Virus record (IMG/VR): IMGVR_UViG_3300027902_000023
Span: 1-30,092 of that record
Source of the DNA: a virus
Reading direction: 5' to 3' (one strand)
Length of the DNA stretch: 30,092 nucleotides
Under the pieces are notes generated by a model, which ran no database searches, was not told the origin of the DNA, and saw only the letters and a list, made by a program, of their open reading frames with translations. The first letter of the stretch is position 1. Each line of letters starts with the position of its first letter. Both the position numbers and the translations under genes were made by a program. Positions 1,348 to 10,302 of the stretch are shown piece after piece.

Positions 1348-1376
1348 TTGACATTTGATTTAATGTATTTTATAAT
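1348..1376 (+). promoter_or_regulatory. Consensus sigma70 promoter of the tRNA/tmRNA array
   Basis: TTGACA (1348-1353), 17-base spacer, TATAAT (1371-1376). Perfect hexamers and optimal spacing. The first tRNA begins 11 bases after the -10 box, so tRNA-Phe and tmRNA are at the head of this transcript. Confidence 0.93.
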
Positions 1377-1476: not shown

Positions 1477-1820
1477 GGGGCTGACAGGAATCGATTGAGG
1501 CAAAATGGTTTAGAGTTGCAAGCGGAGTACCAAAACTCCTAAAAAGTTGGAAAACAATAAATGCAGAACAAGAATTTCTTTTAGCTGCTTAAAACAGCTA
1601 AACGAGCATCATTAAGGTTCCTACACTTTTTAATGCTCGCCATTTAGTAGGATAAGTTTATAGTAAATGGATGTAACTATAAAACAAAAATAACATCCTA
1701 TAAGATAAAGTGGTAATTTTAAGAACCATTTTATATGAAAAGTTGTAAATCTTAAAATAAGCTTGTAGATACTTTAGATTAAGTTGCAGCAAGACGCGGG
1801 TTCAATTCCCGCCAGCTCCA
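1477..1820 (+). ncRNA. ssrA: tmRNA (transfer-messenger RNA)
   Basis: The 5' end GGGGCTGACAGGAATCGA and 3' end GACGCGGGTTCAATTCCCGC-CAGCTCCA form the alanine-type tRNA-like domain of bacterial tmRNA (GGGGCTG pairs with CAGCTCC; T-loop TTCAATT). Length is about 344 nt, close to the bacterial norm. A short frame at 1563-1592 encodes AEQEFLLAA and TAA; if resumption is one codon earlier the tag is NAEQEFLLAA. The tag ends in LAA, the usual ClpXP degradation signal. CCA is only partly encoded (A-CA-T). It sits 13 bases after tRNA-Phe in the promoter-proximal part of the array. Host tmRNA frees ribosomes stalled on messages without a stop codon; a phage copy would support or replace that during infection. 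Confidence 0.95.
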
Positions 1821-1830
1821 CATAATTTAA

Positions 1831-2179: not shown

Positions 2180-2404
2180 ATGGATTCTTGTAAAAGTTGT
2201 AGATCATTAGAGAGTTGTTTTGATGGAATTCATGATGAAACATGGTGGTGTAAAAAATTGAATGAGGCACTTGGAATATTAGAGATACCTTACAAATGGA
2301 ATGAAATAAAATTTAGTATACATGATCTTGATTTCAAATGTTGTTTTTATGAAAGAAGCTTATATGGAGATGCTGCTGAGACGGTGGACAGCACCAGTCT
2401 GTAA
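2180..2404 (+). CDS. Small Cys-rich protein (74 aa) running into tRNA-Tyr
   Basis: Product MDSCKSCRSLESCFDGI... has CxxC and further Cys and His residues that could bind zinc, and a WWC motif. GGAGAACTG precedes the ATG at 2180. Its stop TAA (2402-2404) lies inside the anticodon loop of tRNA-Tyr, which begins at 2366, so the last dozen codons are tRNA sequence. RNase P cleavage would leave a message without a stop codon. No family recognised. Confidence 0.6.
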   Translation: MDSCKSCRSLESCFDGIHDETWWCKKLNEALGILEIPYKWNEIKFSIHDLDFKCCFYERSLYGDAAETVDSTSL

Positions 2405-2455
2405 AACTGGAAGCCTAAAAACTCGTTGGGGGTTCGAATCCCTTCATCTCCTCCA
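2366..2455 (+). tRNA. tRNA-Tyr (GTA), long variable arm
   Basis: Acceptor GGAGATG/CATCTCC, D-stem GCTG/CAGC, anticodon stem CCAGT/ACTGG with loop CTGTAAA, a class II variable arm, T-stem GGGGG/CCCTT with TTCGAAT loop, CCA encoded. Position 8 is C and the discriminator is T, both unusual for Tyr. Confidence 0.93.
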
Positions 2456-2468
2456 TTAAAATAGTTAT

Positions 2469-2542
2469 TCCGAGGTCCTTCAATGGTAGGAGAGGTGACT
2501 GTTAATCACTCAATGGAAGTTCAATTCTTCCTCTCGGAGCCA
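2469..2542 (+). tRNA. tRNA-Asn (GTT)
   Basis: Acceptor TCCGAGG/TCTCGGA, D-stem CTTC/GGAG, anticodon stem GGTGA/TCACT with loop CTGTTAA, T-stem GGAAG/CTTCC with TTCAATT loop, discriminator G and CCA encoded. Follows tRNA-Tyr by 13 bases. Confidence 0.95.
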
Positions 2543-2550
2543 AAATATAT

Positions 2551-2626
2551 GGTGATTGTAACCTAACGGTCAAGGTACTGGTCTGTGAAACCAGGTAAGA
2601 GCGTTCAATTCGCTCCTTTCACCCCA
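2551..2626 (+). tRNA. tRNA-His (GTG) with G-1:C73
   Basis: An extra G (2551) faces discriminator C73, the hallmark of tRNA-His. Acceptor GTGATTG/CTTTCAC contains two T-T mismatches. Anticodon stem CTGGT/ACCAG with loop CTGTGAA; T-stem GAGCG/CGCTC with TTCAATT loop; CCA encoded. Confidence 0.93.
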
Positions 2627-2636
2627 AAATAATTAT

Positions 2637-2710
2637 TCTCCTTTCGTCTAATGGTAAGACAGAGGTCTTTGAAGCCTCGAATCTGAGTTCGATTCTTAGA
2701 AGGAGATCCA
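2637..2710 (+). tRNA. tRNA-Gln (TTG)
   Basis: Acceptor TCTCCTT/AAGGAGA, D-stem GTCT/AGAC, anticodon stem GAGGT/GCCTC with loop CTTTGAA, T-loop TTCGATT, CCA encoded. Nearly identical in its middle to the next tRNA, from which it differs mainly in the acceptor stem and one anticodon base. Confidence 0.96.
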
Positions 2711-2716
2711 AAATAT

Positions 2717-2790
2717 TCGCTCTTCGTCTAATGGTAAGACAGAGGTCTCTGAAGCCTCGAATCTGGGTTCGATTCCTAGAGGGCGAACCA
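2717..2790 (+). tRNA. tRNA-Gln (CTG)
   Basis: Acceptor TCGCTCT/AGGGCGA, anticodon stem GAGGT/GCCTC with loop CTCTGAA, T-loop TTCGATT, CCA encoded. A tandem duplicate of the Gln(TTG) gene six bases upstream that has switched wobble base, so the pair reads both CAA and CAG. Confidence 0.96.
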
Positions 2791-2813
2791 AAAAATTTTA
2801 TTGGAGAAATTTG

Positions 2814-2945
2814 ATGAAGGTAACTATAAAAAATTTGAAAATAGATTCACCAATTGATGATGATATTAAAATTGATTTATTAGAGTTTGAAGGATCAGAA
2901 AATGAATTTAAAACTTTATGTGAAGATTTAGGAATAAAAAGATAA
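2814..2945 (+). CDS. Small acidic protein (43 aa)
   Basis: Product MKVTIKNLKIDSPIDDDIKI..., ending LCEDLGIKR. TTGGAGAAA lies at the right distance before the ATG. It fills the gap between tRNA-Gln and tRNA-Ser, and its codon use matches its neighbours. No family recognised. Confidence 0.55.
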   Translation: MKVTIKNLKIDSPIDDDIKIDLLEFEGSENEFKTLCEDLGIKR

Positions 2946-2951
2946 AATTAT

Positions 2952-3035
2952 GGAGAGGGGCGCGAATGGTGAACGGATAGTTTGCTAAACTATTGCCCGA
3001 AAGGGTAGCGGGGTCAGTACCCGCTCTCTCCGCCA
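2952..3035 (+). tRNA. tRNA-Ser (GCT)
   Basis: Acceptor GGAGAGG/TCTCTCC with discriminator G, anticodon stem ATAGT/ACTAT with loop TTGCTAA, variable arm closed by CCC/GGG, T-stem GCGGG/CCCGC, CCA encoded. The T-loop GTCAGTA lacks T54, and position 8 is G. Confidence 0.93.
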
Positions 3036-3047
3036 TAATAAAATAAA

Positions 3048-3410
3048 ATGAAACATGATCCTAACATTGGATTTAAAGATGGTACTAGAACCATTTGGAA
3101 TAAAGGTTTAACAAAAGAAACAGATGATAGGGTTAAGAAAATATCGAAAAAAGTAGGAGATGCATTAAGGGGTAAAAAGCAATCTTTCAAAGCTATAGAA
3201 GCACAAAAAAGAGGAATGAGGTTATCAGAGATAGTAGGAGGATATAGAGAAGGATCAGGAAGAGGAAAAAAGTTCAAAGTTTTTGATTCATATAATAATA
3301 GAGTTTGTTTGCAATCATCTTATGAATTATATGTTTCTGAAATATTAGATAGGTTAAATATTAAATGGATAAGACCAAAATATTTGATTTATATAGTAGA
3401 AAAAAGATAA
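3048..3410 (+). pseudogene. Remnant of a phage homing-endonuclease gene (EDxHD/VSR-like family?)
   Basis: The 120-aa reading frame contains IWNKGLTKETDDRVKK, typical of DNA-binding modules of phage homing endonucleases. This is followed by GGYREGSGRGKK and SSYELYVSEILDRLNIKW, which resemble the start of the EDxHD (very-short-patch-repair-like) nuclease domain. The usual C-terminal continuation of the nuclease domain is missing: the frame stops after YLIYIVEKR, and no other frame restores a convincing end. There is no ribosome binding site. I read it as a truncated, probably inactive gene left in the tRNA array. Family assignment is from memory of motif style. Confidence 0.6.
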
Positions 3411-3441
3411 AGAGAAGATACAATTGGTGAAAGAACAAAAT

Positions 3442-3540
3442 ATGATTACATTATTTATTTTATCTGAGAATCTTATTACTTGTGATTATATAAAGAAAAT
3501 ATGCCGGGATAGTTCAATTTCTGGTAGAACGGTGGACTGA
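3442..3540 (+). CDS. Possible 32-aa ORF ending in tRNA-Ile
   Basis: Product MITLFILSENLITCDYIKK... with a GGTGAAAG-like ribosome binding site. Its TGA (3538-3540) lies in the anticodon loop of the tRNA that begins at 3503. It is short, so it may be chance or decayed sequence from the endonuclease remnant upstream. Confidence 0.3.
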   Translation: MITLFILSENLITCDYIKKICRDSSISGRTVD

Positions 3541-3580
3541 TAATCCATTAATAGTGGTTCGACTCCACTTCTCGGTACCA
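3503..3580 (+). tRNA. tRNA-Ile (GAT)
   Basis: Acceptor GCCGGGA/TCTCGGT, D-stem GTTC/GAAC with a long D-loop, anticodon stem GTGGA/TCCAT with loop CTGATAA, T-stem AGTGG/CCACT with TTCGACT loop, discriminator A, CCA encoded. Confidence 0.95.
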
Positions 3581-3605
3581 AAAATATAGATCTTGAGGAT
3601 AGACG

Positions 3606-3673
3606 CTGGATATCGTCTAATGGTAGGACTCCGGCAATAGTCGGCAATATGGGTTCGAGTCCCATTATCCAAG
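3606..3673 (+). pseudogene. tRNA remnant with damaged anticodon arm
   Basis: The sequence keeps a near-complete acceptor (TGGATA/TATCCA), D-stem GTCT/GGAC and a good T-arm (ATGGG-TTCGAGT-CCCAT). The anticodon arm is too short (CCG-GCAATAGT-CGG), so total length is only about 68 nt and no anticodon can be assigned. CCA is absent. Directly after it, 3674-3695 is a palindromic T-arm-like sequence (around GAGTTCGAATTC), perhaps from a second lost tRNA. Bases 3700-3809 hold no gene that I can support; an 11-base direct repeat (TCGTGAAATCC) occurs at 3708 and 3781. Confidence 0.6.
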
Positions 3674-3809
3674 TAGTGGAGTTCGAATTCCACTATTTAG
3701 GAACATTTCGTGAAATCCCTCAATTGTAGATAGACAGGAGATTCCGTTCTTGATCGGTCCGGAATTGAATGGAACGTTACTCGTGAAATCCTACAACAAC
3801 TTTTTAAAT

Positions 3810-3905
3810 GGAGAGTTAACCATAACAGAGCAATGGCCTGGTCCAGAAAATCAGTTAGGTTGCCTAATAAGCGCCATGTGGGTTCGAATCCCTCACTCTC
3901 CTCCA
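3810..3905 (+). tRNA. tRNA, long variable arm, anticodon AGA by position (Ser?)
   Basis: Acceptor GGAGAGT/ACTCTCC with discriminator T, anticodon stem CTGGT/ATCAG, class II variable arm (TTAGG/CCTAA), T-loop TTCGAAT, CCA encoded. The loop CCAGAAA places AGA at 34-36 with C at position 33. An A34 serine tRNA is rare in bacteria, and Ser tRNAs usually carry G73, so both identity and function are uncertain. The T-stem has one mismatch. Confidence 0.65.
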
Positions 3906-3918
3906 TTTTTGAATATGA

Positions 3919-4062
3919 ATGAAAGATATTACTAATTTTTTAATTGAAGCTATTAGAAGTTCGAATAGAAGATTTGTCAGAAAAAAAGTGAGAGAAGAGT
4001 ATAATATCTGGAGGGTAGCGTCCGTGGGGACAGGTGGCTTTGAATACCACCGCCGGCAATAG
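3919..4062 (+). CDS. Possible 47-aa ORF ending in tRNA-Ser
   Basis: Product MKDITNFLIEAIRSSNRRFVRKK... is basic and reads like real coding sequence up to about residue 31 (base 4009). After that it is tRNA sequence, and the stop TAG (4060-4062) is in the variable arm of the next tRNA. No clear ribosome binding site. Confidence 0.35.
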   Translation: MKDITNFLIEAIRSSNRRFVRKKVREEYNIWRVASVGTGGFEYHRRQ

Positions 4063-4092
4063 CTGAAGGTTCGACTCCTTTGCTCTCCGCCA
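4010..4092 (+). tRNA. tRNA-Ser (TGA)
   Basis: Acceptor GGAGGGT/GCTCTCC with discriminator G, long variable arm, T-arm TTCGACT, CCA encoded. The anticodon arm is GTGGC-TTTGAAT-ACCAC, giving TGA with T33 but a C31-A39 mismatch next to the loop. Together with Ser(GCT) it covers most serine codons. Confidence 0.88.
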
Positions 4093-4122
4093 TTAATTTT
4101 CATTAAGGAGATTGTATGTGTA

Positions 4123-4293
4123 ATGATCATAAACTTTATACCAATGGCCTTAGTGATAAGTATTTCTTTATATATAATAAAGAAAGATATTGAGACAATA
4201 ACATGGTTTAAGATATTTTCACCTTTTTTGATTTTAGGTTTTATAGAAATTTTGATATTGGTTTTTGATCAAAAACATAAGCTTAGTTGGTAG
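4123..4293 (+). CDS. Small membrane protein (56 aa) ending in tRNA-Cys
   Basis: Two hydrophobic segments (FIPMALVISISLYII and IFSPFLILGFIEILILVF) predict a two-helix inner-membrane protein. AAGGAG (4105-4110) lies 12 bases before this ATG and 5 bases before an out-of-frame ATG at 4116 that opens a 25-codon ORF. Either or both may be translated. The stop TAG (4291-4293) is inside the D-arm of tRNA-Cys. Function unknown. Confidence 0.5.
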   Translation: MIINFIPMALVISISLYIIKKDIETITWFKIFSPFLILGFIEILILVFDQKHKLSW

Positions 4294-4356
4294 ATTGGCG
4301 CATGCGACGGTCTGCAAAACCGTAGAAGATGGGTTCGATTCCCTCACTAAGCTCCA
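4281..4356 (+). tRNA. tRNA-Cys (GCA)
   Basis: Acceptor GCTTAGT/ACTAAGC, anticodon stem ACGGT/ACCGT with loop CTGCAAA, T-loop TTCGATT, discriminator T (the normal Cys identity base), CCA encoded. Confidence 0.95.
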
Positions 4357-4383
4357 TATATTAAATTGAAAAGGAGGAGTAAA

Positions 4384-4887
4384 ATGAAGATTAGTTCAAG
4401 TTCATGGCATTTCAGATTGTGGGCGTATAGACAGAAATTTTTTAGTGGTGATAGTGATGATAGAATTAGGCACCATTCACTTCAGTTGACTTTATGTAGT
4501 TATTTTTGGTCAGTAATTTGGACAATTTGGGTATTTTTCTTCTTTTATGCAATTAGAGTTCCACTAGGTTATATTTTTGGTTTAAGATGGGTTAAAGGAG
4601 AGCATGAATTTATTTTGAAAAATAAAATTCATGCTATATGTGTAGTAGTTTTTCTACTCTTAATGCCAACGTTTATAGCAATTCTTAATCCAAAGGTAAC
4701 ACCTGTTGCATTAACTACTTTGTTTATCTATTTCATAATTGGTGTAATAGTTGCATTAGAAAAGCTTAAAATGTATTTGAATTTATATCCAAGAAAAGAA
4801 GATAGTTTCTATAATGTAACAAAAGAATTTATCAAAGCAAAGAAAGCAAAAGTTTGTCCTAATATAGAAGTTATTTTTCCAAAATAA
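4384..4887 (+). CDS. Membrane protein (167 aa), phage-type
   Basis: I chose the ATG at 4384 because AAGGAGGAG lies 5-13 bases upstream; an in-frame TTG at 4366 has no such site. The N-terminus MKISSSSWHFRLWAYRQKF followed by LCSYFWSVIW resembles small membrane proteins I have seen in large phages. Three to four transmembrane segments are visible: at about residues 45-70, at 85-110 (AICVVVFLLLMPTFIAIL), and at 115-135. The tail is basic and cytoplasmic. Function not known. Confidence 0.75.
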   Translation: MKISSSSWHFRLWAYRQKFFSGDSDDRIRHHSLQLTLCSYFWSVIWTIWVFFFFYAIRVPLGYIFGLRWVKGEHEFILKNKIHAICVVVFLLLMPTFIAILNPKVTPVALTTLFIYFIIGVIVALEKLKMYLNLYPRKEDSFYNVTKEFIKAKKAKVCPNIEVIFPK

Positions 4888-4889
4888 GA

Positions 4890-4918
4890 TTGACTTTTGA
4901 ATAGAAATAAATTATATT
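4890..4918 (+). promoter_or_regulatory. Promoter before tRNA-Asp
   Basis: TTGACT (4890-4895), 17-base spacer, TATATT (4913-4918). Five of six matches in each hexamer. The tRNA begins 8 bases later, so this probably refreshes transcription of the middle of the array. Confidence 0.75.
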
Positions 4919-4925
4919 AAAAGTT

Positions 4926-5002
4926 GGGTACGTAGCATAATTGGTCAGTGTGCTTCCCTGTCACGGAAGAAGGTACCGGTTCGAATCCGGCCGTACCCGC
5001 CA
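4926..5002 (+). tRNA. tRNA-Asp (GTC)
   Basis: Acceptor GGGTACG/CGTACCC with discriminator G, anticodon stem CTTCC/GGAAG with loop CTGTCAC, T-loop TTCGAAT, CCA encoded. First tRNA after the promoter at 4890. Confidence 0.96.
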
Positions 5003-5014
5003 TAAATAAACAAC

Positions 5015-5091
5015 GGCCTACTACCCCAACTGGTAGAGGGAGTGGACTTAAAATCCATAAGTTCCCGGTTCGAATCCGGGGTAGGCTACCA
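5015..5091 (+). tRNA. tRNA with Leu anticodon TAA on a short-variable-arm body
   Basis: Acceptor GGCCTAC/GTAGGCT, anticodon stem GTGGA/TCCAT with loop CTTAAAA, T-arm CCCGG-TTCGAAT-CCGGG, discriminator A, CCA encoded. The variable loop is only five bases (AAGTT), whereas bacterial tRNA-Leu is class II with a long variable arm. One of four related tRNAs with leucine anticodons and this class I shape. Confidence 0.9.
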
Positions 5092-5115
5092 AAAATAATT
5101 GAAGGAGATTGTTAT

Positions 5116-5325
5116 ATGAAATGTCAGTGTTGTAATAAGAATAGAAAATCTCCTAGAAATGCAGTTGTTAGAACTGAGCAAAACAATTTTATTCTATGTG
5201 GTATATGTAGTAATGCTATACATATAAGCAAGAATATTATTTTTGGAATTATGAATAAAAATGTAGATTGGGATTTTCTTATGACATCTACTAAAAAAGA
5301 TTTTGAGAAAGGATTTATAAAATGA
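5116..5325 (+). CDS. Small zinc-ribbon-like protein (69 aa)
   Basis: Start at 5116 is set by GAAGGAGATT upstream; longer readings run back through tRNAs. Product MKCQCCNKNRKSPRN... has CxCC near the N-terminus and CGIC at about residues 36-39, a likely four-Cys zinc site. The last four bases overlap the next gene (ATGA), so the two are translationally coupled. Function unknown. Confidence 0.65.
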   Translation: MKCQCCNKNRKSPRNAVVRTEQNNFILCGICSNAIHISKNIIFGIMNKNVDWDFLMTSTKKDFEKGFIK

Positions 5326-5942
5326 TATTGCTACTTGTTTTGTTTCTTTTATTTAATGTTTCAATAAGTGAAGCACAAATAATAACAAATGAAGTAGTAA
5401 CAAGTGAAACAGTAACAAGTGAACCAAACCCTTTTGGAAGGGTGATAATTAAACATCCAACACCAGATATAACAGTTTATTATCCAGATCCAGAATTAAC
5501 ACCTGGTGTAGTAGATGAAAAAGTTACACAAGATAATTTAAAAGAAACAATTTGTGTATCTGGGTTTACAGCAACTGAAAGAGTAAACCAAACTTCCACA
5601 TTTAAGAAACAAGTTTTTGAGAGATATGGAATTGATTGGAGTCTACATAAACAGTTTGAAGATGATCATTTTTTATCACTTGAAGATGGAGGCAAAGACG
5701 GAGATTTAAATAATAGGTGGCCTCAATATTATTGTCCCAAAGCAACGGCAGGTAAAACTTGTTTCGGCGCAAGGGAAAAAGATGTTTGCGAAACTAATTT
5801 ACATAAAAGAATTTGTGATGGTAAAATGACATTGAAAGAAGCGCAAGAAATTATTATAACAGATTGGTTTATGGAATATTTAAGGATAAAAAGAATTGAT
5901 AGTTTATTAAGCCGCCCCATTAGCTCAACGGATTCAGAGTAA
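5322..5942 (+). CDS. Exported HNH-like nuclease-fold protein (206 aa)
   Basis: Residues 1-19 are a signal peptide (MILLLVLFLLFNVSISEAQ). After a linker, residues about 118-190 carry FEDDHFLSLEDGGKDGDLNNRWPQ, then GAREKDVCETNLHKRICDGK and TLKEAQEII-TDW. This matches my memory of secreted bacterial HNH-like proteins (DH-P-LGG ... NLWPQ ... AKEKDxxEN-LH-VC-G-LxLxxAQ). Export implies action in the periplasm, for example on incoming DNA, although the catalytic set is not fully canonical (DDHF for DHL/I). The stop TAA (5940-5942) falls inside tRNA-Arg, which begins at 5914, so about nine C-terminal residues derive from tRNA sequence. Starts within the previous gene (ATGA overlap). Confidence 0.75.
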   Translation: MILLLVLFLLFNVSISEAQIITNEVVTSETVTSEPNPFGRVIIKHPTPDITVYYPDPELTPGVVDEKVTQDNLKETICVSGFTATERVNQTSTFKKQVFERYGIDWSLHKQFEDDHFLSLEDGGKDGDLNNRWPQYYCPKATAGKTCFGAREKDVCETNLHKRICDGKMTLKEAQEIIITDWFMEYLRIKRIDSLLSRPISSTDSE

Positions 5943-5990
5943 GAGGCTTCTACCCTCCATGAGCCAGTTCGACTCTGGCATGGGGCTCCA
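5914..5990 (+). tRNA. tRNA-Arg (TCT)
   Basis: Acceptor GCCCCAT/ATGGGGC, D-stem GCTC/GAGT, anticodon stem AGAGG/CCTCC (A27-C43 mismatch) with loop CTTCTAC, T-loop TTCGACT, CCA encoded. Reads AGA, a common codon in this AT-rich window. Confidence 0.93.
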
Positions 5991-6036
5991 TATTTTAAAA
6001 GGAACTGAGTATAAAATTACAGCTTAAAAATAAAAT

Positions 6037-6113
6037 GCGTCTGTAGCCCAACTGGTAGAGGCAGTTGCCTCAAAAGCAGCGTGTTGGTGGTTCGAATCCA
6101 CTCAGGCGCACCA
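6037..6113 (+). tRNA. tRNA with Leu anticodon CAA, short variable arm
   Basis: Acceptor GCGTCTG/CAGGCGC, anticodon stem GTTGC/GCAGC with loop CTCAAAA, five-base variable loop GTGTT, T-arm GGTGG-TTCGAAT-CCACT, discriminator A, CCA encoded. Shares its D-arm (CCCAACTGGTAGAGG) with the TAA and AAG tRNAs, showing common descent. Confidence 0.9.
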
Positions 6114-6123
6114 TAAAAATTAT

Positions 6124-6200
6124 GGCTCTGTACCCCAACTGGTAGAGGGAGCTGGCTAAGAACCAGTATAGTAGGAGTTCAAATCTCCTCAGGGCTACCA
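6124..6200 (+). tRNA. tRNA with Leu anticodon AAG, short variable arm
   Basis: Acceptor GGCTCTG/CAGGGCT, anticodon stem GCTGG/CCAGT with loop CTAAGAA, variable loop ATAGT, T-arm AGGAG-TTCAAAT-CTCCT, discriminator A, CCA encoded. A34 in a leucine anticodon is very unusual in bacteria, where A34 (inosine) is mostly limited to Arg(ACG). Confidence 0.9.
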
Positions 6201-6205
6201 AAAAT

Positions 6206-6355
6206 ATGAAAAAGATACTAACAGAAGAAGAGTTTTTAGAAATTTTTGGAAAACCATTTGATGAACAAGAAACAAAGATTAATGTTCTAAAAATAGAATA
6301 TTTTGGATGTTCATTATGGTTTGTAAGAATAAATGCTCCGGAAGCATTACGGTAA
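6206..6355 (+). CDS. Small unrecognised protein (49 aa)
   Basis: Product MKKILTEEEFLEIFGKPFDEQ... ends ...INAPEALR. It starts 5 bases after the tRNA CCA, and no ribosome binding site is visible in the short spacer. Its 3' end lies in the palindrome GCATTACGGTAATGC. The following 6360-6494 has no supported gene, though an open stretch (FDKEQNKINLIIVDKDHLSW) without a normal start suggests a decayed related ORF. Confidence 0.45.
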   Translation: MKKILTEEEFLEIFGKPFDEQETKINVLKIEYFGCSLWFVRINAPEALR

Positions 6356-6494
6356 TGCACTCGGCCTTTATTTTTAAAAATATAAATAATTTATTTGGAT
6401 ACAAAAAAATGACTATTTGATAAAGAACAAAATAAAATAAATTTGATCATAGTTGATAAAGATCATTTGAGTTGGATGAAAGTAAAAGAATTAA

Positions 6495-6571
6495 GCCCTT
6501 TAAACATTTAATTGGATGATGCCTGGTCCTGTAAACCAGTGAAGATGGTTCGATTCCATCAAAGGGCTCCA
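6495..6571 (+). tRNA. tRNA-Thr (TGT), C33
   Basis: Acceptor GCCCTTT/AAAGGGC, anticodon stem CTGGT/ACCAG with loop CCTGTAA, T-arm GATGG-TTCGATT-CCATC, discriminator T, CCA encoded. Position 33 is C and position 8 is A; the D-stem is weak. It complements Thr(GGT) at 10906. Confidence 0.85.
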
Positions 6572-6580
6572 AAATTAAAT

Positions 6581-6653
6581 GGGGCGCTAGCTCATTCAGG
6601 AGAGCACCTGGCCTGCACCCAGGAGGCGGTCGGAGCAAAGCCGACGCGCTCCA
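6581..6653 (+). tRNA. tRNA-Ala (TGC), C33
   Basis: Acceptor GGGGCGC/GCGCTCC, D-stem GCTC/GAGC, anticodon stem CCTGG/CCAGG with loop CCTGCAC (C33), T-stem GTCGG/CCGAC with the non-canonical loop AGCAAAG. CCA is not encoded in full (A then CAT, as in the tmRNA). Only alanine tRNA of the set. Confidence 0.85.
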
Positions 6654-6682
6654 CATCAAAAATCTTTTCTATAAATAGTTAT

Positions 6683-7228
6683 ATGGAAAAGTTGAAATAT
6701 ACAATTTATCAAGTAACAAATTTGATTAATAGTAAGTTTTATGTTGGAATGCATCAAACAAAGAACCTAAAAGATGGTTATATGGGTTCTGGTAAATATT
6801 TAAGAAGAGCTATTTCAAAATATGGAATAGAGAATTTTAAGAAAGAAATTTTATGGTTATGTGATTCTTTTGAAGAAATGAAGGAATTTGAAAAAGGAAT
6901 CATTACAGAAGAATTTCTTGAACAGAATAAAGAAAATACATATAATCTATTAGTTGGTGGCAAGGGTGGATTCTATTATGTAAATAAGGAAGGGTTACAA
7001 CTTGATAACTTCTATAAAAATTTAGATAAGGAAGAAATATTATTACATAGACAGAATGGGGGATATGCTTCATCAAACAGATCAAAAGTAGTTATAACTA
7101 GAATAAGTGATAAAGTAAAAAATTACTATAAAACACATAACGGAACTTTCAAAGGTAAAAAACATACTGAGGAAGCAAAACAAAAAATGAAACGGAATAA
7201 TATACATAATAGGAATAAAATTACTTAG
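6683..7228 (+). CDS. GIY-YIG homing endonuclease (181 aa)
   Basis: The N-terminus has the GIY-YIG core: YTIYQVTNLINSKFYVGMHQT, then GYMGSGKYLRRAISKYGIENF and a catalytic-type Glu in KGIITEEFL. The C-terminus contains FKGKKHTEEAKQKM, a NUMOD3-type DNA-binding helix, and then ends soon after, shorter than many relatives. The ATG at 6683 begins the conserved domain; earlier in-frame starts lie in tRNA sequence. This is a free-standing selfish nuclease of the Seg type, inserted between tRNA-Ala and a small gene. Such enzymes cut phage genomes that lack them and promote their own spread. Confidence 0.85.
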   Translation: MEKLKYTIYQVTNLINSKFYVGMHQTKNLKDGYMGSGKYLRRAISKYGIENFKKEILWLCDSFEEMKEFEKGIITEEFLEQNKENTYNLLVGGKGGFYYVNKEGLQLDNFYKNLDKEEILLHRQNGGYASSNRSKVVITRISDKVKNYYKTHNGTFKGKKHTEEAKQKMKRNNIHNRNKIT

Positions 7229-7233
7229 AAAAA

Positions 7234-7383
7234 ATGTTATATTTTTGTACAAAGTGTCACGAAACGTGCAATTTAGAAAAACATATTGATCCATACAAGT
7301 TTATATGTGAAGATTGCAAAAGAAAGATAGATGCCTCTGTACCCCAATTGGTAGAGGGTTCTGGCTTAGAACCAGATAGTTAG
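7234..7383 (+). CDS. Small zinc-ribbon protein (49 aa) ending in a tRNA
   Basis: Product MLYFCTKCHETCNLEKHI...FICEDCKRK has CxxC twice, a likely zinc ribbon. The tRNA begins at 7333, so about the last 16 codons are tRNA sequence, and the stop TAG is at 7381-7383. No clear ribosome binding site. Confidence 0.5.
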   Translation: MLYFCTKCHETCNLEKHIDPYKFICEDCKRKIDASVPQLVEGSGLEPDS

Positions 7384-7409
7384 GAGTTCGAATCTCCTCA
7401 GGGGCACCA
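7333..7409 (+). tRNA. tRNA with Leu anticodon TAG, short variable arm
   Basis: Acceptor GCCTCTG/CAGGGGC, anticodon stem TCTGG/CCAGA with loop CTTAGAA, five-base variable loop, T-arm AGGAG-TTCGAAT-CTCCT, discriminator A, CCA encoded. Fourth member of the class I leucine-anticodon group. Confidence 0.92.
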
Positions 7410-7412
7410 AAA

Positions 7413-7487
7413 GGGCTCATAACTCAACGCGTAGAGTAGCTGGCTTTTAACCAGTAAATCGGGGTTCGACTCCCCGTGAGCCCACCA
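7413..7487 (+). tRNA. tRNA-Lys (TTT)
   Basis: Acceptor GGGCTCA/TGAGCCC, D-stem ACTC/GAGT, anticodon stem GCTGG/CCAGT with loop CTTTTAA, T-arm CGGGG-TTCGACT-CCCCG, discriminator A, CCA encoded. Only three bases separate it from the previous tRNA. Confidence 0.96.
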
Positions 7488-7495
7488 TAAAAAAA

Positions 7496-7617
7496 TTGAC
7501 TATACCGACACCTGGGTGTGGGGTCAAGGAAATGGAGGTCAATTTCTACCAAAGCGGTAGCAATCTCCATGGAGACTCAAGTGGTGTGACGCAAGGCTGA
7601 GAGGGGCCGAACCATTT
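7496..7617 (+). ncRNA. Candidate structured RNA between tRNA-Lys and small genes
   Basis: A GC-richer, ORF-free stretch with several helices: TTGAC/GTCAA (7496-7500 with 7523-7527), GAAAT/ATTTC (7529-7533 with 7542-7546), CTACC/GGTAG (7546-7560) and TCTC/GAGA around CATG (7564-7575). ACACC (7508-7512) could pair with GGTGT (7583-7587) to close the whole. The 3' part has GGCTGAGA (7595) and GAACC (7609), words found in TPP riboswitches, but the rest of that consensus is absent. It could be a leader of the gene at 7637 or an independent RNA. Confidence 0.45.
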
Positions 7618-7636
7618 TTATATATGAAGGAGTGAA

Positions 7637-7777
7637 ATGATGTTAAAACTAACTCATAAAAGACCTTGTTCAGAAACAAAAGAACATTTTATTGCTACGA
7701 ATGAAAAAGAAACTCATTATTGGTGTTTAATATGTGCAAAAGAATTGAATAAGGATGGTACAGAGAAGAAATGTTGA
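7637..7777 (+). CDS. Small His/Cys-containing protein (46 aa)
   Basis: GAAGGAGTGAA precedes the double ATG at 7637. Product MMLKLTHKRPCSETKEHF...HYWCLICAKEL contains CxxC with nearby His and Cys residues, suggesting metal binding. Its stop overlaps the start of the next ORF (ATGTTGA), so the two are probably translationally coupled. Lies downstream of the structured stretch at 7496-7617. Confidence 0.6.
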   Translation: MMLKLTHKRPCSETKEHFIATNEKETHYWCLICAKELNKDGTEKKC

Positions 7778-7950
7778 AAATAGATGATGAAACAAAAGCA
7801 ATTGTAAATGATATGAAAAAGAGATGTTTTTATTTTAAAAATGAAAAATGTTTTCATAAGCATAGAAAGATGTACTGGTTTATAAAACCGTTGTGTGATA
7901 GATCATACCATACTCCATGTATGTATTTTAAAGTTAAAGCGCGCCTGTAG
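7771..7950 (+). CDS. Small Cys/His-rich basic protein (59 aa) ending in tRNA-Lys
   Basis: Product MLKIDDETKAIVNDMKKRCFY... has four Cys and four His residues (KCFHKH, PLCDRSYHTPC), a possible zinc-binding fold. Start overlaps the previous stop. The TAG stop (7948-7950) is exactly T8-A9-G10 of the tRNA-Lys that begins at 7941, so the conserved tRNA core supplies the stop codon. Confidence 0.6.
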   Translation: MLKIDDETKAIVNDMKKRCFYFKNEKCFHKHRKMYWFIKPLCDRSYHTPCMYFKVKARL

Positions 7951-8016
7951 CAAAGAGGCTAATGCATCTGACTCTTAATCAGAAGATCGTCGGTTCGACT
8001 CCGACCAGGCGTACCA
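7941..8016 (+). tRNA. tRNA-Lys (CTT)
   Basis: Acceptor GCGCCTG/CAGGCGT, anticodon stem TCTGA/TCAGA with loop CTCTTAA, T-arm GTCGG-TTCGACT-CCGAC, discriminator A, CCA encoded. Reads AAG, complementing Lys(TTT). Confidence 0.96.
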
Positions 8017-8041
8017 TATAAATATTTTTGGAGGGTGAGTT

Positions 8042-8227
8042 ATGGTGATAACAGAAGAAATTGTAAAAAAGAGATTAACTGATTTATTGAATGAATGTTT
8101 AGAATCTGCTAATCAAGAACATTCATTTGTAGTTAAAAAGGTTGATTTAGTAAATAAAAAATTCTTAGTAGAATTTGATATAGTCGAAGTACCTGAAGAT
8201 GACTATATTGGATTTCAAGGTTATTAA
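8042..8227 (+). CDS. Small acidic protein (61 aa)
   Basis: TTGGAGGGTGAGTT provides a good ribosome binding site. Product MVITEEIVKKRLTDLLNECL... is predicted helix then beta strands, ending IGFQGY. Not recognised. It ends four bases before tRNA-Val and does not overlap it. Confidence 0.65.
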   Translation: MVITEEIVKKRLTDLLNECLESANQEHSFVVKKVDLVNKKFLVEFDIVEVPEDDYIGFQGY

Positions 8228-8231
8228 AAAT

Positions 8232-8307
8232 GCATCATTAGCCATCTGGGGATGACCACCGCCCTACAAGCGGATGCAGCGGAGTCCGATTCTCCGATGA
8301 TGCACCA
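8232..8307 (+). tRNA. tRNA-Val (TAC), C33 and C55
   Basis: Acceptor GCATCAT/ATGATGC, T-stem CGGAG/CTCCG, CCA encoded, discriminator A. The anticodon stem CCGC/GCGG encloses loop CCTACAA, giving TAC with C33. The T-loop TCCGATT has C at position 55, and the D-stem has a C11-A24 mismatch. It is the only valine tRNA of the set. Confidence 0.85.
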
Positions 8308-8332
8308 AAAATAATTTGAGATATATAGTAAA

Positions 8333-8366
8333 TTTGATTCGTTAGGGGTAAAAAAGGAGAATCAAA
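8333..8366 (+). promoter_or_regulatory. Hairpin sequestering the ribosome binding site of the next gene
   Basis: TTTGATTC (8333-8340) is perfectly complementary to GAATCAAA (8359-8366). The second arm overlaps the AAGGAG site and reaches the A of the ATG at 8366. Forming this 8-bp stem would block initiation; translation could require a protein, temperature change or upstream translation to open it. Confidence 0.55.
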
Positions 8367-8620
8367 TGAGTAAACTATATATCCCTATTGGAAATATCAA
8401 GCATGGAGAAGAGATTCCAGGAAAAGTTGGCAGGTATTGTGAAGTACATCAAACAATACATGGTCGTTTTTATAGGTGTCATAAATACTCTGAAAAAATA
8501 AAAGAAGAAATTAAGAAAGAAGAAAGAAGACATTTAAATATAAGTTCTAGTATAGCAATTGTAATAATATTTGTAATTTTACTAACGATAGAAGTATTGA
8601 AATATAAACCGCCCCTGTAG
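8366..8620 (+). CDS. Tail-anchored small protein (84 aa) ending in tRNA-Arg
   Basis: Product MSKLYIPIGNIKHGEEI... has a Cys/His-containing soluble part (RYCEVHQTIHGRFYRCHKY) and a C-terminal membrane helix (SSIAIVIIFVILLTIEVL). The stop TAG (8618-8620) is T8-A9-G10 of tRNA-Arg(ACG). AAGGAG lies before the ATG but inside the hairpin at 8333-8366. The four Cys/His residues may bind zinc. Function unknown. Confidence 0.65.
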   Translation: MSKLYIPIGNIKHGEEIPGKVGRYCEVHQTIHGRFYRCHKYSEKIKEEIKKEERRHLNISSSIAIVIIFVILLTIEVLKYKPPL

Positions 8621-8687
8621 TTCAACGGATTAGAATGCTCGGCTACGAACCGGGAGGTTGCGGGTTCAATTCCTGCCAGGGGTACCA
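8611..8687 (+). tRNA. tRNA-Arg (ACG)
   Basis: Acceptor GCCCCTG/CAGGGGT, D-stem GTTC/GAAT, anticodon stem CTCGG/CCGGG with loop CTACGAA, T-arm GCGGG-TTCAATT-CCTGC, discriminator A, CCA encoded. A34 here is the usual substrate of bacterial TadA. Confidence 0.95.
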
Positions 8688-8715
8688 AATTTTGCAGGAG
8701 TGAGGAGTTTCAAAA

Positions 8716-9219
8716 ATGGATTGTTACGTATTGACAAATAGTTTTGAATACCATGACACAATCAAGTGGAAGACTGCGATGCAAATGTTGCACCGTGAGA
8801 GTCAACCAGTTGAAGTCATCCTATACTCTGATTATGAAATTAAGCCAGGTGTTTATGCACCAAAGGTTTTAAAGTTACACAGAGATGTTAGAAAGTACTA
8901 TGGGAAGAAAGTTCATTGGAGCCCAGAAAATCTTTTTAGCAGAGATGATTATACTTGTAAATATTGTGGTATAAAGATGGGCAGAAATGAATGTACTATC
9001 GATCATGTTATACCACAATGCAGAGGTGGAAAGACTGAATTTGATAACTGTGTTACCGCTTGTCATGATTGCAACAATAAGAAGGACAACAGAACACCTT
9101 CTGAAGCAAAGATGTATTTAAAGAAATTACCATATACTCCAACAATTATGGAATTTTTCAGAAAGAAAGTAAAGAGAGATGGAATTGTTGAAGTATTGAA
9201 AGAATTAGGTATTTACTAA
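8716..9219 (+). CDS. HNH endonuclease (167 aa)
   Basis: Residues about 75-130 form a classic HNH domain with a structural zinc site: CKYCG, then CTIDHVIPQCRGGKTEFDNCVTAC, then HDCNNKKDNRTPSEA. The catalytic DH and the downstream Asn are intact. AGGAGTGAGGAG gives a strong ribosome binding site. The N-terminal 70 residues are probably an additional DNA-interaction region. It is most likely a free-standing homing endonuclease in the tRNA array, although a host-DNA-degrading role is possible. Confidence 0.85.
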   Translation: MDCYVLTNSFEYHDTIKWKTAMQMLHRESQPVEVILYSDYEIKPGVYAPKVLKLHRDVRKYYGKKVHWSPENLFSRDDYTCKYCGIKMGRNECTIDHVIPQCRGGKTEFDNCVTACHDCNNKKDNRTPSEAKMYLKKLPYTPTIMEFFRKKVKRDGIVEVLKELGIY

Positions 9220-9231
9220 AAATTATTACAC

Positions 9232-9260
9232 TTGACTCTTGAAAAGAATTACTATATAAT
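9232..9260 (+). promoter_or_regulatory. Promoter before the lipoprotein gene
   Basis: TTGACT (9232-9237), 17-base spacer, TATAAT (9255-9260). The gene starts 20 bases downstream with GGAGGAAAG before its ATG. The transcript would continue into tRNA-Arg(CCT) and beyond. Confidence 0.85.
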
Positions 9261-9280
9261 AGCTCAAAAATGGAGGAAAG

Positions 9281-9637
9281 ATGAATAAATTGTTGTTAAT
9301 TTTGATTACTATTTTTGTGTTGGTTTCAGGTTGTGGCCCAACTTTAAACCAAACAATGAATTCACAAATGATTTCAAAAGGAACTACAACAAATTCTACA
9401 CCATATGAATGTATTATTATAGAGAATTCAAAAACAAGATGGAGTGCAATATCAAAATCACTTGCAGTAGTTGCACCATTAATTTCAGCAGCGGGTGTTA
9501 GTTGGGTAGCAGGAGCTATAGCTGGTGCTTGTTCCGTTGGTTCTGCTGTTATTGCAGATGGAAAAGTAACTGACTATCTTTTAATGGGTTGCCCTACTGT
9601 GGTGAGTACATCGACAGGAACGGTAATTTTGAAATAG
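9281..9637 (+). CDS. Lipoprotein (118 aa)
   Basis: A type II signal peptide (MNKLLLILITIFVLVSGC) with lipobox LVSGC predicts an envelope lipoprotein lipidated at Cys 18. The middle has a hydrophobic Gly/Ala-rich stretch (LISAAGVSWVAGAIAGACSV) that may insert into membrane. It has its own promoter. Plausible roles are superinfection exclusion or lysis control, but nothing in the sequence decides. The stop TAG ends at 9637, which is nucleotide 1 of tRNA-Arg(CCT), so RNase P would cut between A and G of the stop codon. Confidence 0.75.
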   Translation: MNKLLLILITIFVLVSGCGPTLNQTMNSQMISKGTTTNSTPYECIIIENSKTRWSAISKSLAVVAPLISAAGVSWVAGAIAGACSVGSAVIADGKVTDYLLMGCPTVVSTSTGTVILK

Positions 9638-9711
9638 CGCCATTAGCCTATCGGAGCAGGTACTGGTTTCCTAAACCAGTTAAACAGGTTCAACTCCTGT
9701 ATGGCGCACCA
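9637..9711 (+). tRNA. tRNA-Arg (CCT)
   Basis: Acceptor GCGCCAT/ATGGCGC, anticodon stem CTGGT/ACCAG with loop TTCCTAA, T-arm ACAGG-TTCAACT-CCTGT, discriminator A, CCA encoded. Third Arg tRNA; its G1 is also the last base of the upstream gene's stop codon. Confidence 0.95.
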
Positions 9712-10230: not shown

Positions 10231-10240
10231 TTTTTATAGT

Positions 10241-10302
10241 AACCCTATGGTCGATAGTGGCGGAAGCTCTCCGGCCAATCTATCATAAAGGTTCCATAGG
10301 TT
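10241..10302 (+). ncRNA. Compact structured RNA, unidentified
   Basis: An outer helix AACC-CTATGG / CCATAG-GTT encloses GATAG/CTATC, then TGGC-GGA / TCC-G-GCCA capped by AGCTC. The whole element folds into one long bulged hairpin, has no ORF, and lies 10 bases after tRNA-Trp and 16 before the next tRNA. A T-rich tract follows. It may be a processing signal, terminator or small RNA; I know no match. Confidence 0.55.

What the first reader, a model, noticed from the sequence alone, without database searches (positions are those of the whole stretch)
2180..9637. Gene stop codons lie inside tRNAs, so tRNA maturation would create stop-less mRNAs next to a phage tmRNA
ORFs ending at 2404, 4293, 5942, 7383, 7950, 8620 and 9637, and two weaker ones ending at 3540 and 4062, use stop codons inside or straddling a downstream tRNA. 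At 7948-7950 and 8618-8620 the TAG is the conserved T8-A9-G10 of the tRNA. At 9635-9637 the stop spans the RNase P cut site. RNase P cleavage of each co-transcript removes the stop codon from the mRNA, and ribosomes would stall at the new 3' end. tmRNA is the pathway that rescues such ribosomes and tags the product for degradation, and this phage carries its own tmRNA at the head of the same array. The arrangement could couple tRNA processing to a switch from making small early proteins to destroying them, or could simply be tight packing made tolerable by tmRNA.
Basis: partly seen in the sequence, partly recalled or inferred. Interest (0 to 1): 0.88.

Follow-up and report, generated by a model that had tools for sequence, protein, structure and literature searches.

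The report
Gene stops borrowed from phage tRNAs
In a crowded phage tRNA cluster several small genes end on stop codons that lie inside the next tRNA; this is real, but the same packing is found in phage T5 and other phages that lack their own tmRNA, so it looks like ordinary tight packing rather than a tmRNA-linked switch.

Summary
Seven ORFs (ends 2404, 4293, 5942, 7383, 7950, 8620, 9637) stop inside or across the 5' end of a downstream tRNA; the two weak ones (3540, 4062) remain doubtful. A 345-base tmRNA with tag AEQEFLLAA lies in the same array. Three of the genes are well supported as coding, three moderately, one weakly. The arrangement is not more frequent than its setting predicts: tRNA and tmRNA cover 32% of the array, and 7 of 19 stops fall in them against 6.0 expected under rotation. 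No gene start does. It is not tied to a phage tmRNA: pooled over 17 other phages or contigs, 3 of 19 gene-to-tRNA junctions overlap with a tmRNA and 12 of 60 without. Phage T5, which has no tmRNA, carries it in its published annotation. The one close homologue found (L001, of 8366-8620) has its own TGA where the window has the tRNA, so the window gene lengthened by three residues to the tRNA's T8-A9-G10. Best reading: gene and tRNA modules became joined so tightly that the tRNA supplies the stop. RNase P should then leave stop-less mRNA, which host rescue can handle. The proposed synthesis-to-destruction switch has no support.

The parts
1348..1376 (+). Consensus sigma-70-like promoter (TTGACA-17-TATAAT) just upstream of the array
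   Evidence: 12 of 12 consensus match; not tested functionally
1477..1821 (+). Phage tmRNA (ssrA), tag AEQEFLLAA
   Evidence: ARAGORN; Rfam RF00023 137.7 bits, full length
2180..2404 (+). ORF, 74 aa, stop TAA at tRNA-Tyr positions 37-39
   Evidence: ORF list; SD and modest codon score; no homologue found
2366..2455 (+). tRNA-Tyr(GTA) that supplies the stop of 2180-2404
4123..4293 (+). ORF, 56 aa, hydrophobic, stop TAG at tRNA-Cys positions 11-13
   Evidence: SD match of 6 bases, weak codon score
4281..4356 (+). tRNA-Cys(GCA)
5322..5942 (+). 206-aa secreted-type protein, relatives on plasmids (some annotated HNH endonuclease); stop TAA at tRNA-Arg positions 27-29, last 9 residues read from the tRNA
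   Evidence: codon score 34; tblastn to plasmids E down to 2e-18; alignment
5914..5990 (+). tRNA-Arg(TCT)
7234..7383 (+). ORF, 49 aa, CxxC motifs, stop TAG at tRNA-Leu positions 49-51; weak
   Evidence: ORF list; no SD
7333..7409 (+). tRNA-Leu(TAG)
7771..7950 (+). ORF, 59 aa, start overlaps stop of 7637-7777, stop TAG = T8-A9-G10 of tRNA-Lys
   Evidence: no homologue found
7941..8016 (+). tRNA-Lys(CTT)
8366..8620 (+). ORF, 84 aa, stop TAG = T8-A9-G10 of tRNA-Arg; homologue in L001 ends with its own TGA where the window has the tRNA
8611..8687 (+). tRNA-Arg(ACG)
9281..9637 (+). 118-aa lipoprotein-like ORF; stop TAG split by the RNase P site (TA|G) of tRNA-Arg
   Evidence: codon score 16, SD; no homologue found
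9637..9711 (+). tRNA-Arg(CCT)

Best explanation
This is tight packing in a phage tRNA array. Protein-gene and tRNA modules were joined, by insertion or recombination, so closely that the gene lost its own stop codon and now ends at an in-frame stop inside the tRNA. T8-A9-G10 and similar trinucleotides are ready-made stops, and about 70% of tRNA/frame combinations hold one. The overlap is tolerated because ribosomes can finish on the uncut transcript, while the tRNA folds and is cut by RNase P afterwards. Copies cut first would be stop-less and would go to the cell's ordinary ribosome rescue and RNA decay. The phage tmRNA may add capacity, but the arrangement neither needs it nor appears built around it. 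Shown: the overlaps, their lack of excess over random placement, their presence in phages without a tmRNA, and one stop lost at a tRNA joint. Inferred: co-transcription, cutting, order of events, and rescue.
For: Homologue of 8366-8620 in L001 ends LKYK-TGA with no tRNA there, while the window reads LKYK-PPL-TAG across the tRNA 5' end. Stops in tRNAs: 7 of 19, 6.0 expected; starts: 0 of 19; the observed frame is often not the one with the nearest stop. First stops exist in 73 of 105 tRNA/frame combinations, 19 of them at position 8. Same overlaps without a tmRNA over cut-off: T5 T5.069, hegC and hegD as annotated, the Vibrio phage TDDLMA homing endonuclease (TAG at 8-10), GAP32_468 and the nt-1 HNH gene. 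In the T5orf172-domain family, four T5-like phages have the gene ending in a tRNA: tRNA-Asn, tRNA-Glu (two phages) and tRNA-Lys, with overlaps of 24, 14, 10 and 10 nt; none has a tmRNA over cut-off. The distantly related contig G002 has HNH genes ending at positions -1 and 8, and no tmRNA over cut-off.
Against: The window has a higher share of overlapping junctions than the other phages sampled (5 of 8 against 15 of 79, P 0.014), which leaves room for something peculiar to it. Only one of the seven genes had a close phage homologue that could show the ancestral stop. The gene caller is home-made, and the sample of phages was chosen by hand.
Confidence: 0.85

Rival explanations
1. Programmed switch: RNase P cutting of the co-transcripts turns early mRNAs into stop-less mRNAs, and the phage tmRNA tags their products for destruction.
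For: Geometry fits: all seven stops would be removed or split, and a full-length tmRNA sits in the array. The share of overlapping junctions is high here.
Against: No excess over random placement of stops; overlaps as common in phages without a tmRNA; the homologue in L001 lacks it; tmRNA-bearing Braelyn has an interleaved array of the same style with 1 of 11 junctions overlapping, and phage G 0 of 3.
Confidence: 0.03
2. Tolerated by-product: the overlaps arise by chance packing, but stop-less mRNA is made in quantity and the phage tmRNA was kept partly to pay that cost.
For: Follows from RNase P and tmRNA biochemistry (own knowledge); tmRNA and tRNA arrays occur together in several phages (PMC5966550, PMC4131195). 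PMC5966550 suggests that arrays may call for extra ribosome rescue, for a different reason.
Against: No association between overlap and tmRNA in the sample (3 of 19 against 12 of 60); hosts normally have their own tmRNA (own knowledge).
Confidence: 0.25
3. Translation governs tRNA maturation: ribosomes terminating within the tRNA 5' half delay its folding and cutting, so tRNA yield depends on translation of the upstream gene.
For: Stops lie at tRNA positions -1 to 51, so a terminating ribosome would sit on the tRNA.
Against: No conservation of stop position or of which tRNA is involved across the cases seen; no data on yield.
Confidence: 0.05
4. Artefact: the ORFs are not genes.
For: 7234-7383, 3424-3540 and 3919-4062 lack an SD, an ATG start or a confirmed tRNA; several ORFs have no homologues.
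Against: 5322-5942, 8366-8620 and 9281-9637 have SD, codon signal or homologues.
Confidence: 0.05

Closest known systems
Phage T5 tRNA region (T5.069, hegC and hegD overlapping tRNA-Asn, tRNA-Ser2 and tRNA-Gln2)
   Same: Interleaved small genes, homing-type endonucleases and tRNAs, with annotated stops inside the downstream tRNA
   Different: No phage tmRNA; a smaller share of junctions overlap (3 of 7 against 5 of 8)
tmRNA-bearing phages with tRNA arrays (Streptomyces phage Braelyn, mycobacteriophage Rey, Gordonia phage Sixama, Bacillus phage G)
   Same: tRNA genes and a tmRNA in the phage genome, interleaved or nearby (PMC4131195, PMC5966550)
   Different: Few gene-tRNA overlaps: 1 of 11, 1 of 2, 1 of 3 and 0 of 3 junctions
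Mitochondrial tRNA punctuation
   Same: mRNA 3' ends set by tRNA excision, with stops split or lost at the joint (general knowledge; papers)
   Different: In mitochondria polyadenylation completes T or TA to TAA; here most stops lie well inside the tRNA and could not be mended so. Only TA|G at 9635-9637 could in principle

Membership tests
Phage tRNA array with tmRNA | Many phage tRNA genes with an ssrA gene in the same array | tested here: met
   29 tRNAs plus tmRNA by ARAGORN; Rfam largely agrees
Phage tRNA array with tmRNA | Contig is viral | tested here: met
   Held as a virus record; phage-type endonuclease hits in PHROGs
T5-type gene/tRNA overlap | Coding gene whose stop lies in the downstream tRNA on the same strand | tested here: met
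   Seven cases, three with strong coding support
T5-type gene/tRNA overlap | Own stop present in a homologue without the tRNA | tested here: met
   One gene only: 8366-8620 against L001
tmRNA-dependent regulatory switch | Overlap associated with a phage tmRNA | tested here: not met
   3 of 19 junctions against 12 of 60
tmRNA-dependent regulatory switch | Overlap conserved in relatives | tested here: inconclusive
   L001 homologue of one gene has its own stop and no tRNA; no phage relatives found for the other genes tested
tmRNA-dependent regulatory switch | Tagged products and stalled ribosomes at the cut ends | not testable with these tools
   Needs infection experiments; host unknown
Mitochondrial-type tRNA punctuation | Split stops completed by poly(A) | not testable with these tools
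   Only the stop at 9635-9637 (TA|G) has the right geometry

The most novel reading that the evidence does not exclude
Phage tRNA arrays show a bacterial form of tRNA punctuation: RNase P cutting regularly makes stop-less mRNAs from overlapping genes, limiting how many times each message yields a finished protein, and a phage tmRNA clears the stalled ribosomes.
Probability: 0.12. Interest if true: 0.7.

Novelty: new member of a known kind. Interest (0 to 1): 0.3.

Why it matters
Stops borrowed from tRNAs turn up in unrelated tRNA-rich phages, yet no paper on them came up in the searches made here. They raise a plain, testable question: how often does tRNA cutting strand ribosomes, and who rescues them? 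They also mean that gene callers that forbid CDS-tRNA overlap may lose or truncate real phage genes, as the PSa2 copy of the T5orf172 gene suggests (present, not annotated).

Tried and rejected
Searches for homologues of 5322-5942, 9281-9637, 7774-7950 and 2180-2404 in viral contigs found none; 5322-5942, 8366-8620 and 9281-9637 found none in phages. The tag-coding pattern of the tmRNA found no exact relative in viral contigs. Blastn with the tmRNA matched only its 3' end in the listed phages. Selection for the shortest read-in was tested and rejected: at tRNA-Cys, -Arg(5914), -Leu and -Tyr the gene uses a frame whose stop is not the nearest. A genome-contig scan for 5322-5942 gave one short match in an archaeal bin, not followed. 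Accessions NC_005859, NC_004687 and AY129337 are not held. Paper searches for stop codons inside phage tRNAs found nothing direct.
Full report
What was claimed. Several ORFs in a phage tRNA array end on stop codons inside the downstream tRNA; RNase P would remove the stop, and a phage tmRNA in the same array would handle the stalled ribosomes, perhaps as a switch.

Observation. ARAGORN lists 29 tRNAs and one tmRNA between 1387 and 11058, and Rfam agrees on most, adding tRNAs at 3606, 3810 and 6581. The tmRNA is full length (Rfam 1-374, 137.7 bits). The seven main ORFs are present, with stops starting at tRNA positions 37, 11, 27, 49, 8, 8 and -1. With a codon model trained on the window's long ORFs and scored only outside tRNAs, 5322-5942 scores 34, 9281-9637 scores 16 and 8366-8620 scores 7, each with a Shine-Dalgarno match; 2180-2404 and 4123-4293 score 5 and 2 with an SD. 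ORFs 7234-7383 and 7771-7950 have no SD, but the ATG of the latter overlaps the stop of 7637-7777. 5322-5942 has relatives on many plasmids (E down to 2e-18), two listed ones annotated as HNH endonuclease, whose similarity ends about where the tRNA begins.

Chance. In the array tRNA and tmRNA cover 31.6% of the bases (this count includes five extra tRNA-like stretches placed by eye or by Rfam). Of 19 genes that I listed by hand, 7 stops lie in them; rotation of the stops gives 6.0 +/- 2.0, P 0.40. No start lies in them (P 0.0007). So stops are neither drawn to nor kept out of tRNAs, while starts are kept out. A stop is found in 73 of 105 tRNA/frame combinations, most often at position 8 (19 cases), so a gene that runs into a tRNA usually ends there.

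Other phages. A uniform home-made caller was run on 17 other phages or contigs. Overlapping junctions: T5 3 of 7, G002 3 of 7, KVP40 1 of 3, nt-1 1 of 5, TDDLMA 1 of 8, GAP32 1 of 10, DSL-LC03 1 of 2, G003 1 of 1, and none in G004, RaK2, XacN1, SCTP-2 and T4: 12 of 60 without a tmRNA over cut-off. With one: Rey 1 of 2, Sixama 1 of 3, Braelyn 1 of 11, phage G 0 of 3: 3 of 19 (Fisher P 1.0). The window has 5 of 8 by this caller, higher than the rest (P 0.014), but it was selected for this trait. G002, G003 and G004 may be incomplete, so absence of a tmRNA there is provisional. Several overlaps are in the depositors' own annotation: T5, TDDLMA, GAP32.

Recurrent origin. The T5orf172-domain gene (Pfam PF10544, PF13455) ends inside tRNA-Asn in T5 (24 nt), inside tRNA-Glu in phages faergetype (14 nt) and GEC_vB_N7 (10 nt, the stop at 8-10), and, unannotated, inside tRNA-Lys in PSa2 (stop at 8-10). 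None of these phages has a tmRNA over cut-off. In G002 two HNH genes end at positions -1 and 8 of tRNAs. Many overlapping genes are thus endonucleases of mobile type, as expected if the joint is made when a gene is inserted or recombined beside a tRNA (inference). For the window itself, the homologue of 8366-8620 in L001 has LKYK followed by TGA overlapping the next ATG, with no tRNA; in the window LKYK is followed within two bases by the tRNA, and the frame reads PPL and the tRNA's TAG. This is the clearest single piece of evidence on origin.

Mechanism. If gene and tRNA share a transcript, cutting at the tRNA 5' end leaves a stop-less message; this rests on known RNase P and trans-translation biochemistry, not on data here. 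Consensus promoters lie at 1060-1088, 1348-1376 and 9232-9260, and the pattern scan found no + strand terminator in the array, though the number of promoter-like sites as a whole is at chance level. Host tmRNA would serve as well as the phage's. No evidence supports a timed switch.

Literature. Phages with ssrA are known (PMC4131195), as are arrays with tmRNA, and it has been suggested that extra rescue factors go with tRNA arrays (PMC5966550). No paper held here was found that treats stop codons inside phage tRNAs; the library is open-access only.

Verdict. A real feature, ordinary in kind, at the high end in number. Interest 0.3; the broader question of stop-less mRNA from phage tRNA arrays deserves a direct experiment in T5.

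Noticed in passing
9635-9637; L009 8154-8156; L038 3379-3381; L030 and L012 (minus strand): Five of the called overlaps have the stop split by the RNase P site (TA|G or T|AG). Added A residues could restore TAA, as in mitochondria. Pure speculation for bacteria.
   Followed up: no
L051 401-868: Escherichia phage PSa2 carries an unannotated T5orf172-type reading frame ending at tRNA-Lys positions 8-10; seemingly lost from the annotation because of the overlap.
   Followed up: partly
2002-2072, 2951-3034, 4008-4093, 8231-8307, 10240-10300: Further tRNA-like sequences, judged by eye, that neither ARAGORN nor Rfam reports at default cut-offs.
   Followed up: no
3606-3673: tRNA-like sequence reported by Rfam in the own-genome search but not by ARAGORN; its anticodon region looks unusual.
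   Followed up: no
6683-7228 and 8716-9219: GIY-YIG (SegE-like) and HNH endonucleases within the array, likely homing endonucleases.
   Followed up: partly
27530-29806 (-): A 758-aa ORF made of NIPAS.TINNV-type repeats, with a 197-aa ORF on the opposite strand.
   Followed up: no
1060-1088 and 1302-1340: Consensus promoter before a 45-aa ORF, followed by an inverted repeat with a T run that looks like a terminator (by eye; not in the scan's list), just upstream of the array promoter.
   Followed up: no
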